Below are positions 19,823-38,296 of a stretch of 64,000 nt of DNA, in pieces. This stretch comes from a virus. The position numbers and the translations under genes were made by a program. The stretch is from IMG/VR virus record IMGVR_UViG_3300035670_000028, positions 62,001 to 126,000 of that record. One strand, written 5' to 3'. Numbering within the stretch: the first letter of the stretch is position 1; the number at the start of each line of letters is the position of its first letter. Under the pieces are notes generated by a model. The model saw only the letters and a list, made by a program, of their open reading frames with translations. It made no database searches and was not told the DNA's origin.

Positions 19823-20242
19823 ATGGCAAAGCTGAATGAGTCAAAGATCGTTGAGGCCATGCGCCTCGCCTATCTCCGGAGGCTCCACGAGGTGATCGGT
19901 GAGACCGACGTGAAGGACAAGAGGGGTAATGTGGTGATCTCTCCCGGTCTCAAGGTCCGTCACAAGAAGTCACAGTTCGAGTACACTGTGTCATCTGTGA
20001 AGGAGGATCCGAAGTCAGGCGACGTGGTGATCACTCTCAAGAGCCCTGAGATGCCGCGTTTCACGCCTTCCGGTGGGCAGGAGTTCGTGGGCGAGGAGAC
20101 ACCTCTACTGACAGGCGCCGCTCCTACCTCGGGTCACGATGAGGAGCTCGCAGCAATGGCTCAGCCGGACGCTGTCGAGGGCGAGGAGACCGTCTTCATG
20201 GTGGATGAGAAGGAGTTCAAGAAGGACTACGAGGTGAAGTGA
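19823..20242 (+). CDS. Tag-bearing protein with KOW-like segment
   Basis: 139 residues. The N-terminus KLNE|SKIVEAMRLAYLRRLHE|V is a tag-type helix with two (L)xE sites. GLKVRHKKSQFEYTVSSVKED and VVITLKSPE look like a small barrel. A Glu/Asp-rich tail follows. It directly follows the scaffold-like gene and overlaps the next gene. Confidence 0.6.
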   Translation: MAKLNESKIVEAMRLAYLRRLHEVIGETDVKDKRGNVVISPGLKVRHKKSQFEYTVSSVKEDPKSGDVVITLKSPEMPRFTPSGGQEFVGEETPLLTGAAPTSGHDEELAAMAQPDAVEGEETVFMVDEKEFKKDYEVK

Positions 20243-20937
20243 TGCACATCGACGACGACATCAAGAAGGAGATCCGCCGCTCCCTAGGCCTTCCGGAGCG
20301 GAGGGCAGAGTCAAAGATCAATGAGGCGTACGTTGTTGAGCCCAAGTCCTACACGCTCAAGACCGACTTCCTGAGCGACAAGGCGAAGAAGGCCCGCATC
20401 GACGACTTCAGCGCGAACGCCAAGTCACTAAACGCTGTGAGCGCGAAGCTGGACACCGCCTCAAGGGACGATGCGGACGACCGCTCCTCGGAGTTCAGGT
20501 CGCTCAAGGTCGACGAGGCGCACTGCCTCAATGAGGCCTTCCTCAGGGCGCGCCACTTCGACAACATCGACGATCCCAGGAGCCAGATCTCCATGGACAC
20601 ACTTTCCTTCATGCGCCTCGAGCGGGACTTCGGCGGATTCGACGCGTGGCAGAAGGACTTCATAGCCTGCGGCATGTCGGCACGCAGTGGTTACGTTGTG
20701 ACCGCCTACAACATCCTGCTCGGCAGGTACATGAACCTCGTGGTCGACGCGGGAGGCTGCAACATACCGATCGGATGCATGCCCATCGTTGTTCTCGACG
20801 TCTCAGAGGGCGCGTACTACCGGGACTACATCGGTGATCGCAAGACCTACATCATCGCAATGATGAAGGAGCTCAACTGGGACGTCATCGAGGAGCGCGT
20901 CAAGAAGGCTGAGAGGATCGCGAAGGTGATGGCATGA
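20242..20937 (+). CDS. Superoxide-dismutase-fold protein with altered metal site, tag-bearing
   Basis: 231 residues. After a basic helix and KINE|AYVV, the body follows Fe/Mn superoxide dismutase: HCLNEAFLRARHF, GFDAWQKDFIACG, then VLDVSEGAYYRDYIGDRKTY and LNWDVIEERV. In the enzyme the last signature is DVWEHAYYLDY. Here the Asp is kept but the metal-ligand His is Gly, so normal catalysis is doubtful. It sits among head proteins, so a structural or cargo use of the fold is likely. ATG 20242 overlaps the previous TGA. Confidence 0.65.
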   Translation: MHIDDDIKKEIRRSLGLPERRAESKINEAYVVEPKSYTLKTDFLSDKAKKARIDDFSANAKSLNAVSAKLDTASRDDADDRSSEFRSLKVDEAHCLNEAFLRARHFDNIDDPRSQISMDTLSFMRLERDFGGFDAWQKDFIACGMSARSGYVVTAYNILLGRYMNLVVDAGGCNIPIGCMPIVVLDVSEGAYYRDYIGDRKTYIIAMMKELNWDVIEERVKKAERIAKVMA

Positions 20938-21875
20938 GACCCACATCAAAGACAGGACCGGTTCAGGCGACACAGCACGATCCCATGCATGGGCCAACAC
21001 CCACCTGGGTTCACGGAAAGGGTCGCCGCCCAGGCACGCTTCTCATCGGATCAAAGTCAGGCGCAGACACACGTGAAGTGCCTGCAAACAGCGTCAAGTT
21101 TAAGTTCGGCCCGGACACTGAGATGTTTGGGATTCCCTACACAGACCCATATGCGCAGAATGAGTCTGCCGGCTTCAAGCTCACTAGGGCACAGCTTCGT
21201 GCCATGATCCTCGAGGTTCTCACTGAGGGTGAGGACGAGGGCGGTGATGAAGGCGGCGATGATCTCTTTGGTGACGCCGAGGGCGGCGAAGACGAAGAGG
21301 GCGGAGATGAGGGCGGTGAGGAAGCGGGCGGCGAAGAGAGTGGAGATAAAGAGGGAGGAGATGAGGGTGGCGGCGAGGAAGGGGGTGACGAGGAAGAAGC
21401 TGCCGACGACAGCGAAAAGGACGAGGAAAAGGAGCCTGAGCCCACAGGCCCGGTTGGAGACGAGGTCGATATCGCCCTGAAGGACGTTATGGCTGACTTT
21501 GAGAAGCGCGCCCTGGACGCTGCAAAGGCGAAGGGAGAGCTCAAGCCTGTCGATGCGGTCAAGAAGGAGGGACGTGTGTCCCTTGCACGTCTACTGTTCG
21601 AGGAGGAGGAGACACCGCTCATGGACATGGGCACGTTCGCTGCAGATGTTGCTAGGCTCATCAGCAACTACGACTCCCTCATCGACATGGAGGCAGTGAT
21701 CTACACAAAGGCGAAGGATTTCCTGGAGAAGAAGTACGGCAAGGAGTACTCCGACCAGCTGGAGGATATACTCGCTCGTGAGTACAACATAGAATTCGAC
21801 CACGAGTATGACCCAGAGAAAGCAGAGCAGCCGATCTTCGCAGTCGGCGCCACAGCGGCGGCCGCAGGCGCCTGA
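20934..21875 (+). CDS. Acidic Gly/Asp/Glu-repeat head protein with internal tag
   Basis: 313 residues. An N-terminal 80-residue domain is followed by the tag FKLTRAQLRAMILEVLTE|GEDE, then about 75 residues of GGDE/GGEE repeats, then a helical domain with ARLLFE|EEET. Two good (L)xE sites flank the acidic repeat, so cleavage would free a highly acidic peptide. That recalls acidic internal peptides of T4 heads. ATG overlaps the previous stop. Confidence 0.6.
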   Translation: MRPTSKTGPVQATQHDPMHGPTPTWVHGKGRRPGTLLIGSKSGADTREVPANSVKFKFGPDTEMFGIPYTDPYAQNESAGFKLTRAQLRAMILEVLTEGEDEGGDEGGDDLFGDAEGGEDEEGGDEGGEEAGGEESGDKEGGDEGGGEEGGDEEEAADDSEKDEEKEPEPTGPVGDEVDIALKDVMADFEKRALDAAKAKGELKPVDAVKKEGRVSLARLLFEEEETPLMDMGTFAADVARLISNYDSLIDMEAVIYTKAKDFLEKKYGKEYSDQLEDILAREYNIEFDHEYDPEKAEQPIFAVGATAAAAGA

Positions 21876-36464: not shown

Positions 36465-36659
36465 ATGACAGCTCGTAAGCCGGTGAGTGACCGGGATCTT
36501 GTATCACTTAGACAGCGCGGCCTGATCCTCGCTGAAGAGACTGCTTTCTGGCAGGACGGCGTTCTAACAGTAGAAAACCTTATCAATAAGCAGCAGAGGC
36601 TACTGACAGTCGATGTCAGCACTCTACTAGAGTCAAATAGAAGGGTGCTAAAGGGCTGA
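36465..36659 (+). CDS. Small protein upstream of GroEL
   Basis: 64 residues, mostly helical (DRDLVSLRQRGLILAEETAFWQDGVLTVENLINKQQRLL). ACGGAGG precedes ATG 36465, and its stop overlaps the chaperonin ATG. It is not a GroES by sequence: no mobile-loop or barrel pattern is visible. Function unknown. Confidence 0.6.
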   Translation: MTARKPVSDRDLVSLRQRGLILAEETAFWQDGVLTVENLINKQQRLLTVDVSTLLESNRRVLKG

Positions 36660-38296
36660 TGACTGCATTTAAGAACCTCACGTTCGGGGATGAGGCCCGA
36701 GAGAAGATCCAGCGTGGCGTCAATATTCTCTCCGACGCTGTGAAGGTCACAATGGGTCCTCGAGGCCGCAACGTGATCATCGAGAGGGAGTCTGGCCCAC
36801 CGCACCTGACGAAGGACGGCGTGACAGTCGCCCAGGCAATCGACCTCAGGGACAGGTTCGAGAATCTCGGAGCGCAGATGGTGAAGGAGGCCGCACAGCG
36901 GAGCGCCGAGATCGCAGGCGACGGCACCACGACCTCCACAGTCCTCGCCCAGGAGATCTACAACGAGGGCCTCAAGATGATCTCTGCGGGATTCGAGCAG
37001 TCAGAGGTGTGCAAGGGCATCACGGACGCCGCGGCCGCCGTGATTCAGTCCGTGTCAGAGATCTCACGCCCCATTGTGAGCGATGAGGACATCGTGCACG
37101 TCGGAACAATTTCCGCCAACGGGGACCGAGAGATCGGTGAGCTCATTGCTCGGGCCCTGTCATCGGTGGGTCGTGATGGCACGGTCACTGTCGAGGAGGC
37201 GAAGGGATTTGAGTCGACCCTCGACGTGGTCGACGGCACCCAGATTCCGCGCGGCTACCTCTCACCCTACTTCGTCACCAACCACGACAAGCTCCTGTGC
37301 GAGCTCGACAACCCGTACATCATTCTCGTCAACAAGACCATTTCCTCCATCAAGGAGCTGCTCCCGTTGCTCGAGCGCCTGCACAATGAGAAGCGATCTG
37401 CCCTTCTCATATCTGACGACCTCGACGCCGAGGCACTGCAGGCACTTGCTGTCAATAAGTTGAAGGGCATCCTGTCCATCTGCGCAATCAAGGCCCCGGA
37501 GTTTGGGGACACGCGGGTCCACACGTTCGACGACCTGTCGCTTCTCACCGGCGCGTCTGTGATCAATGCAGCGACACTTGACTCAGGCAAGGCATTTGAC
37601 ACACTCACACTCACCGCCTGCAAGAAGGCCATTGTCACCAAGACGTCGACTACGCTAGTGGGCTGCAAGCCACCCAGCGCCGACCTCCTCACAGAGCGTG
37701 TGAAGTCCCTCAGGGAGAAGCTCAGCGACCCCTCGCTGCAGGGTCCAGAGAGGGAAGTGACGCAGCGTCGGCTCTCAAGGATATCCGGAGGAGTCGCTGT
37801 GCTTCGTGTCGGTGGATCCACGGAGATTGAACTGAAGGAGCGCAAGGACAGGGTCGATGACGCACTCCACGCAACCCAGGCTGCAATCGAGGAGGGCATT
37901 GTTCCTGGTGGTGGAACTGCCTTGATCCGCGCCTCGAAGTGCTTGGATAAGCTTGTACAAAGGGATGAGGACAGCTACAATTGTGGAGTTAGAATCATGA
38001 GGACAGCGTGTGAGGCTCCCATGAGGCAGATTATTCTTAACTCCGGCGTGTCACCAGACATTATTCTGGAGCGTGTAAAGAAGATGAAGGGAAGCCAGGG
38101 CTATGACGCTCGAGGCGAGACATACAAGGACCTGATCGCTGTGGGAATCATTGATCCCACGAAGGTCGTCAAGTCAGCTGTGAAGCACGCAGCTTCCGTT
38201 GCGTGCAACCTTCTGTCCATCGGTGCTGCTGTCACTTACGATGTGAGAGAAGCTTCTGACGACATGTCACAAGATAGTTCGCTTTTGTTCGGTTAA
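36659..38296 (+). CDS. groEL: Chaperonin GroEL (Cpn60)
   Basis: 545 residues, full family length. KVTMGPRGRNVIIE and HLTKDGVTVAQAI form the nucleotide pocket, AGDGTTTSTVLA carries the ATPase Asp, and GGGTALIRA is the late signature. It lacks the GGM-type C-terminal tail and shows many substitutions (e.g. CKGITDAAAAVI). Phage GroELs can fold capsid proteins without host help; no GroES gene is seen in the window, so it may work alone or borrow the host lid. Confidence 0.93.
   Translation: MTAFKNLTFGDEAREKIQRGVNILSDAVKVTMGPRGRNVIIERESGPPHLTKDGVTVAQAIDLRDRFENLGAQMVKEAAQRSAEIAGDGTTTSTVLAQEIYNEGLKMISAGFEQSEVCKGITDAAAAVIQSVSEISRPIVSDEDIVHVGTISANGDREIGELIARALSSVGRDGTVTVEEAKGFESTLDVVDGTQIPRGYLSPYFVTNHDKLLCELDNPYIILVNKTISSIKELLPLLERLHNEKRSALLISDDLDAEALQALAVNKLKGILSICAIKAPEFGDTRVHTFDDLSLLTGASVINAATLDSGKAFDTLTLTACKKAIVTKTSTTLVGCKPPSADLLTERVKSLREKLSDPSLQGPEREVTQRRLSRISGGVAVLRVGGSTEIELKERKDRVDDALHATQAAIEEGIVPGGGTALIRASKCLDKLVQRDEDSYNCGVRIMRTACEAPMRQIILNSGVSPDIILERVKKMKGSQGYDARGETYKDLIAVGIIDPTKVVKSAVKHAASVACNLLSIGAAVTYDVREASDDMSQDSSLLFG

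What the first reader, a model, noticed from the sequence alone, without database searches (positions are those of the whole stretch)
20242..20937. Superoxide-dismutase fold re-used in a head-protein block with a lost metal ligand
DVSEGAYYRDY replaces the enzyme signature DVWEHAYYLDY, so the last His metal ligand is Gly while the fold signature persists. KINE|A precedes the domain. This looks like an enzyme fold turned into a structural or cargo protein.
Basis: partly seen in the sequence, partly recalled or inferred. Interest (0 to 1): 0.7.

Follow-up and report, generated by a model that had tools for sequence, protein, structure and literature searches.

The report
Phage SOD-fold protein without metal site
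A family of large uncultivated phages keeps one superoxide-dismutase-shaped protein that looks as if it is trimmed by the enzyme that matures the virus head, and in several lineages including this one the protein has lost its metal site, which suggests the phage needs the shape rather than the enzyme activity.

Summary
The ORF (20242-20937, 231 aa) has the Fe/Mn-SOD fold (Pfam E 2.7e-14; AF2 pLDDT 85; best PDB match Aquifex Fe-SOD, TMq 0.78). All three metal histidines are gone (R52, R102, G190); only Asp186 remains.

It belongs to a single-copy, syntenic family in uncultivated phages related to T4. Of 90 distinct family proteins compared, 67 keep all ligands, 21 lost all three His and 2 lost one or two. 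On a tree of 83 of them, built without these columns, complete loss needs four changes; one rests on a long branch (L027). Outside the site the 18 ligand-less proteins on that tree keep 653 of 702 conserved cells.

Every N-terminal extension ends in xE| (Glu in 90 of 90; [LIV] at P3 in 88), the kind of site cut by T4-type prohead protease. Of 20 records searched, 10 of the 11 of at least 140 kb encode that protease; the exception is the window's own, a fragment.

Best reading: a head-targeted, protease-processed SOD-fold protein whose assembly or cargo role outlives catalysis. Cleavage and virion location are inferred, not shown. New variant of a known kind.

The parts
20242..20937 (+). SOD-fold gene, 231 aa plus stop; the ATG shares one base with the stop of the upstream gene (TGATG)
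20242..20325 (+). putative 28-aa propeptide: predicted helix at residues 5-15, then a linker with pLDDT under 50 at residues 21-29, ending KINE
   Evidence: AF2; Glu at P1 in 83 of 83 and 7 of 7 further family proteins; cleavage itself inferred
20314..20328 (+). putative prohead-protease site KINE|A, cut between codons 28 and 29
   Evidence: T4 consensus recalled; role of gp21 from passages of PMC5694885
20326..20934 (+). putative mature SOD-fold protein, residues 29-231
20395..20397 (+). codon 52, Arg in place of metal ligand His26
20545..20547 (+). codon 102, Arg in place of metal ligand His73/74
20752..20754 (+). codon 171, Gly in place of the second-shell His (Gln143 in human MnSOD)
20797..20811 (+). 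codons 186-190 DVSEG: ligand Asp kept, Trp to Ser, Glu kept, ligand His to Gly
19823..20242 (+). upstream partner gene, 139 aa; N-terminal helix then an invariant Glu ([LI]xE) in 8 aligned members; followed by the SOD gene in 39 of 39 loci found with it
   Evidence: AF2 poor, pLDDT 63
20934..21875 (+). downstream partner gene with an acidic stretch; its cluster is found in 39 of 40 loci, directly after the SOD gene in 38

Best explanation
The gene encodes a head-targeted protein of a T4-related phage that uses an Fe/Mn-SOD fold. It is made with an N-terminal propeptide (a short helix plus a flexible linker) that brings it into the prohead core; the phage's gp21-type protease cuts after KINE and leaves a 203-aa mature SOD-fold protein in the head. 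The ancestor probably bound Fe or Mn and may have dismutated superoxide. The conserved job is an assembly or cargo role of the fold, because the metal site has been given up at least three or four times while the rest of the protein stayed conserved. In the window's lineage the pocket is filled by other residues (R52 and R102 beside D186; usually E171 in sister proteins), so canonical Fe/Mn binding and SOD activity are not expected. Shown: fold, loss of ligands, repeated loss, conservation outside the site, conserved Glu site, synteny. Inferred: cleavage, protease responsible, place in the virion, loss of activity.
For: Fold. Ligands: of 83 distinct phage proteins 63 keep three His, 18 have none, 1 has two, 1 has one; 7 more add 4 with all and 3 with none. 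Tree of 88 rows without the site columns: 'lost' needs 4 changes, 4 also the least that starred branches force; the window sits in a clade of 10 ligand-less proteins, 100/97. Retention: of 45 columns at least 95% conserved in ligand-bearing proteins, five site columns are kept in 0 of 18 and the Asp in 9 of 18, while the 39 others keep 653 of 702 cells; of 10 such columns absent from cellular SODs, 9 are kept in at least 17 of 18 and one (D91) in 9 of 18. Cleavage site: P1 Glu 83 of 83, P3 [LIV] 81 of 83, P1' A, S, G or N 83 of 83, and 7 of 7 for all three; none of 5 bacterial relatives has Glu there. Protease and gp23-type capsid protein: 10 and 11 of 20 records. Capsid-protein N-termini carry L[RK]E at the corresponding place in 8 of 8 loci, and the gene after the protease has a helix then [LI]xE|G in 7 of 8 (by eye). 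Core gene: one SOD match in each of 34 records.
Against: No virion or cleavage data. The protease and capsid genes were not found in the window's own 147-kb record, which may be a fragment. The SOD gene is not beside the capsid gene in relatives (tens of kb away: L004 at about 126 kb and capsid at about 68 kb in G003). Neighbours are not recognisable head proteins. L027, one of the four losses, is a long branch whose place is unsure, and L015 is weakly placed (84/21). dN/dS could not be measured: no ligand-less pair was below saturation. P1' is Gln in 3 of the 8 capsid proteins, outside the recalled T4 consensus.
Confidence: 0.62

Rival explanations
1. Packaged enzyme: the family is a virion-borne SOD cargo that protects the genome or the early infected cell, and the ligand-less lineages are losing the trait.
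For: 67 of 90 distinct proteins keep the four inner-sphere ligands, and 37 of 63 also keep the outer-sphere set that I defined. Giant-virus virions carry an SOD, a Cu,Zn enzyme, by the passages of PMC9405923.
Against: Ligand-less proteins stay conserved (653 of 702 cells) and form whole clades, not scattered decayed genes (L147, L167/L168 and L177). 20 of 63 ligand-bearing proteins have Gln for the Glu of the dimer-interface pair, always with Val or Ala for its Arg.
Confidence: 0.2
2. Infected-cell protein: an auxiliary SOD-like protein acting in the host cytoplasm, whose xE|A junction is only a linker.
For: No virion evidence; neighbours include nucleotide-metabolism-like genes (read by eye from the ORFs).
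Against: Glu at the junction in 90 of 90 while the upstream sequence varies in length from 21 to 61 aa (lengths depend on my choice of first ATG); absent from 5 of 5 bacterial relatives; one place and one copy in every record examined, unlike a typical auxiliary gene.
Confidence: 0.15
3. Rebuilt metal or other chemistry: the ligand-less proteins use a different site, for example H105 with D186 and E171.
For: H105 is His in 8 of 18 ligand-less and 1 of 63 ligand-bearing proteins (Fisher p 1.1e-5, tested after seeing it and not corrected for relatedness).
Against: H105 is absent in 10 of 18; the mature window protein has only two His, 94 and 105; the pocket residues differ between the ligand-less clades (RRED-like in clade A, N-S/T-S-R in clade B).
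Confidence: 0.06

Closest known systems
Fe/Mn superoxide dismutase, nearest solved Aquifex pyrophilus Fe-SOD (1coj)
   Same: Whole fold (TMq 0.78, rmsd 1.7), SOD C-terminal profile, Asp ligand, dimer-interface Glu
   Different: Three His ligands, second-shell His and Trp lost; phage N-terminal extension; nine or ten phage-specific conserved columns
T4 internal proteins and Alt with a capsid targeting sequence cut by gp21
   Same: Short N-terminal extension ending in xE| before a folded domain; T4-type protease in relatives. Works-like comparison from passages of PMC5694885 and PMC3012670
   Different: Extension longer (21-61 against 10-20 residues) and not alike in sequence; no experimental cleavage or packaging
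'superoxide dismutase' of uncultured Caudovirales phages, A0A6J5L953 and A0A6J5L7W0
   Same: Only two significant fold matches among predicted viral structures
   Different: Named as enzymes by annotation; 501 and 182 residues; I did not examine their ligands or N-termini
SOD-fold subunits of other machines: PAP4/FSD3 and PAP9/FSD2 chains in the PDB; mitoribosomal mS42/mS43 (recalled, not confirmed)
   Same: SOD fold built into a large complex (their roles are recalled)
   Different: Eukaryotic; not phage, no prohead-type site

Membership tests
Fe/Mn superoxide dismutase | SOD fold and C-terminal domain profile | tested here: met
   PF02777 E 2.7e-14; Foldseek 1coj E 5.2e-12
Fe/Mn superoxide dismutase | N-terminal domain profile | tested here: inconclusive
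   Only the C-terminal Pfam domain is listed at E up to 1, but the model has the two N-terminal helices and the family profile matches 1coj from position 42
Fe/Mn superoxide dismutase | Inner-sphere ligands His26, His74, Asp159, His163 (human numbering, PMC5836015 passages) | tested here: not met
   R52, R102, D186, G190: one of four. Met in 67 of 90 relatives
Fe/Mn superoxide dismutase | Superoxide dismutation with bound metal | not testable with these tools
   Needs purified protein
Phage head protein with a T4-type capsid targeting propeptide | N-terminal extension ending in [LI]xE|[AGS] (consensus recalled) | tested here: met
   KINE|A here; P1 Glu 90 of 90, P3 [LIV] 88 of 90
Phage head protein with a T4-type capsid targeting propeptide | Genome encodes a T4-type prohead protease (Peptidase_S77) | tested here: inconclusive
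   10 of 20 records, 10 of the 11 of at least 140 kb; not found in the window's own record, possibly a fragment
Phage head protein with a T4-type capsid targeting propeptide | Cut form present in the virion | not testable with these tools
   Needs virion proteomics
Auxiliary metabolic gene (phage SOD enzyme) | Catalytic site intact | tested here: not met
   For the window protein

The most novel reading that the evidence does not exclude
In a broad group of T4-related large phages an SOD-fold protein is a standard head-core or packaged component. Its metal site is an optional extra that has been discarded in several lineages, so an ancient metalloenzyme has become a building block or carrier of the phage head, with ligand-bearing members possibly acting as a packaged dismutase.
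Probability: 0.4. Interest if true: 0.8.

Novelty: new variant of a known kind. Interest (0 to 1): 0.62.

Why it matters
It offers a natural series from metal-complete through partly lost (L001, L063) to metal-free SODs inside one conserved phage gene, which makes the question of whether a fold or its chemistry is under selection directly testable. If the protein is packaged, it would be an unusual head component and, in ligand-bearing members, possibly an antioxidant enzyme delivered with the genome. Records naming it 'superoxide dismutase' would need care.

Tried and rejected
Rejected: a single-ligand loss (all three His are gone); a recent pseudogene (open frame, conserved outside the site, whole clades); an alternative His site as the main reading. 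The phage record MW462191, whose SOD matches at 33%, looks like an ordinary enzyme beside bacterial-type genes; the other weak match, MT839568, was not examined.

Led nowhere: dN/dS of ligand-less pairs, all saturated; family scans of neighbours; fold of the upstream partner, pLDDT 63, not searched further; one neighbour (cluster 5 protein of L004) against annotated phages, no match. The N-terminal motif test and the C-terminal one used patterns written after seeing the sequences. The family sample is not random: one search kept the best 80 of 180 relatives, ranked by likeness to the ligand-less window protein.

Literature: searches (3 papers; 5; 31, 20 listed; 195 held three of five terms, 15 listed; 0) showed me no listing on a phage head SOD; apart from passages of PMC9405923 I saw listings only. 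The library lacks most subscription papers.

Full report
What is there. The ORF at 20242-20937 encodes 231 aa. Pfam finds only the SOD C-terminal domain, E 2.7e-14; PHROGs finds nothing. The closest solved chain is Aquifex pyrophilus SOD, 1.1e-19 with the single sequence and 7.1e-34 with the family profile. The AF2 model has pLDDT 85.0 and pTM 0.76, with a free helix at residues 5-15 and a linker of pLDDT under 50 at 21-29. In Foldseek's PDB search the 50 listed hits are SODs, 1coj first. Among predicted viral structures only two match significantly, both named superoxide dismutase of uncultured phages.

The metal site. Human MnSOD binds Mn through His26, His74, His163 and Asp159 (passages of PMC5836015). 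In an alignment of 83 distinct phage relatives and 8 cellular SODs the window protein has R52, R102, G190 and D186. Counting His at the three positions, 63 of 83 proteins have three, 1 has two (L063), 1 has one (L001) and 18 have none. Seven further distinct proteins add four with three and three with none. In the 18 proteins without His, the second-shell His and the Trp before the Glu are also lost in all, and the Asp in 9. In clade A, with the window, the replacements are mostly Arg, Arg, Glu, Asp and Gly; in clade B Asn, Ser or Thr, Asn, Ser and Arg. A salt-bridge network in place of the metal is my inference; no coordinates were at hand.

How often it was lost. A maximum-likelihood tree of 83 phage and 5 bacterial proteins, with the site columns left out, needs four changes for the fully lost state, and four are forced by well-supported branches; the two partial proteins form a further clade. 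The window lies in a clade of 10 ligand-less proteins (100/97). Clade B of 6 is nested beside ligand-bearing L009 and L014. L015 is weakly placed (84/21), though L167/L168 and L177 show the same replaced residues. L027 is a long branch of unsure place, so three losses is the cautious number. Counts of changes do not give direction; the bacterial outgroup and the deepest phage branches are ligand-bearing, so loss is the natural reading.

The rest is kept. Of 45 columns at least 95% conserved among ligand-bearing proteins, 39 lie outside the site, and in the 18 ligand-less proteins 653 of 702 cells are unchanged. Ten of these columns are not shared with cellular SODs; nine are kept in at least 17 of 18 and one, D91, in 9 of 18. 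A direct dN/dS test failed through saturation. Even ligand-bearing members vary: 20 of 63 have Gln for the interface Glu, always together with Val or Ala for the paired Arg, and 37 of 63 keep the complete outer-sphere set that I defined.

The N-terminal site. In 83 of 83 proteins Glu stands at the P1 position, [LIV] at P3 in 81 and Ala, Ser, Gly or Asn at P1'; the seven further proteins agree. The stretch before it varies from 21 to 61 aa, partly by my choice of first ATG. None of the five bacterial relatives has the Glu. [quoted passage not shown] also PMC3012670). The exact T4 consensus is recalled. Of 20 records searched, 11 have a gp23-type capsid protein and 10 a Peptidase_S77 protease; of the 11 records of at least 140 kb, 10 have both and the window's own has neither. 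By eye, the capsid proteins of 8 loci all have L[RK]E at the likely cut, with Gln after it in three, and the gene after the protease, in the place of T4 gp22, has a helix then [LI]xE|G in 7 of 8.

Gene context. One SOD match per record in 34 of 34 records. In 40 loci, some of them near-copies, the downstream partner is present in 39 and adjacent in 38. Searching with the upstream partner found 39 loci, all 39 with the SOD gene next to it. That partner also has an N-terminal helix followed by an invariant Glu in 8 aligned members. No neighbour scanned matches a known head family, and in relatives the gene is tens of kb from the capsid gene. So 'head-protein block' is an inference from the processing pattern.

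Who carries it. Viral contigs: 39 loci and 180 relatives of which the best 80 were kept. Bacterial genome contigs: one 306-kb contig binned with a Methylococcaceae MAG that carries a family member (L137) and five bacterial SODs. The capsid protein of a relative matches T4-superfamily capsids, best 43.6% identity over 72%.

Reading. The simplest account is a prohead-targeted, protease-processed protein with an SOD fold. The metal site was there in the ancestor and is optional; the fold and phage-specific residues are not. Whether ligand-bearing members act as a packaged dismutase is open. One oddity remains: position 105 is His in 8 of 18 ligand-less and 1 of 63 ligand-bearing proteins, so a partly rebuilt site in some members is not excluded.

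Scores. Fold and loss of ligands are close to certain; repeated loss is strong; targeting and cleavage are likely; virion location is inferred. Interest 0.62.

Noticed in passing
Loci L001-L136 and window 59264 onward (+ strand): A C-terminal motif [RK]W..LAG[LI] near the stop is shared by proteins of very different size: 51 distinct tails among 8437 stop-to-stop frames, 80 occurrences on the + strand and 4 on the -, 1 in shuffled tails (pattern written after seeing it, loci overlap). It also ends the small protein upstream of the capsid gene. It may be a head-core docking signal.
   Followed up: partly
window 3362, 3670, 26829, 29660, 30999, 56852, 57223, 57902, 59315: N-termini like LRxIIxE in 9 of 90 window genes of at least 75 aa, against about 1 in internal stretches (pattern written after seeing it). 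Possibly a shared prohead targeting helix.
   Followed up: partly
alignment position 105 of the SOD family (window codon 20554-20556): His in 8 of 18 ligand-less but 1 of 63 ligand-bearing proteins. Unexplained.
   Followed up: partly
ligand-bearing SOD relatives, positions 189 and 200: The interface Glu/Arg pair is replaced by Gln/Val (18) or Gln/Ala (2) together in 20 of 63 proteins.
   Followed up: no
window 36659-38296: Chaperonin of the Cpn60/GroEL family (Pfam 5.5e-68; PHROG 1.6e-144).
   Followed up: no
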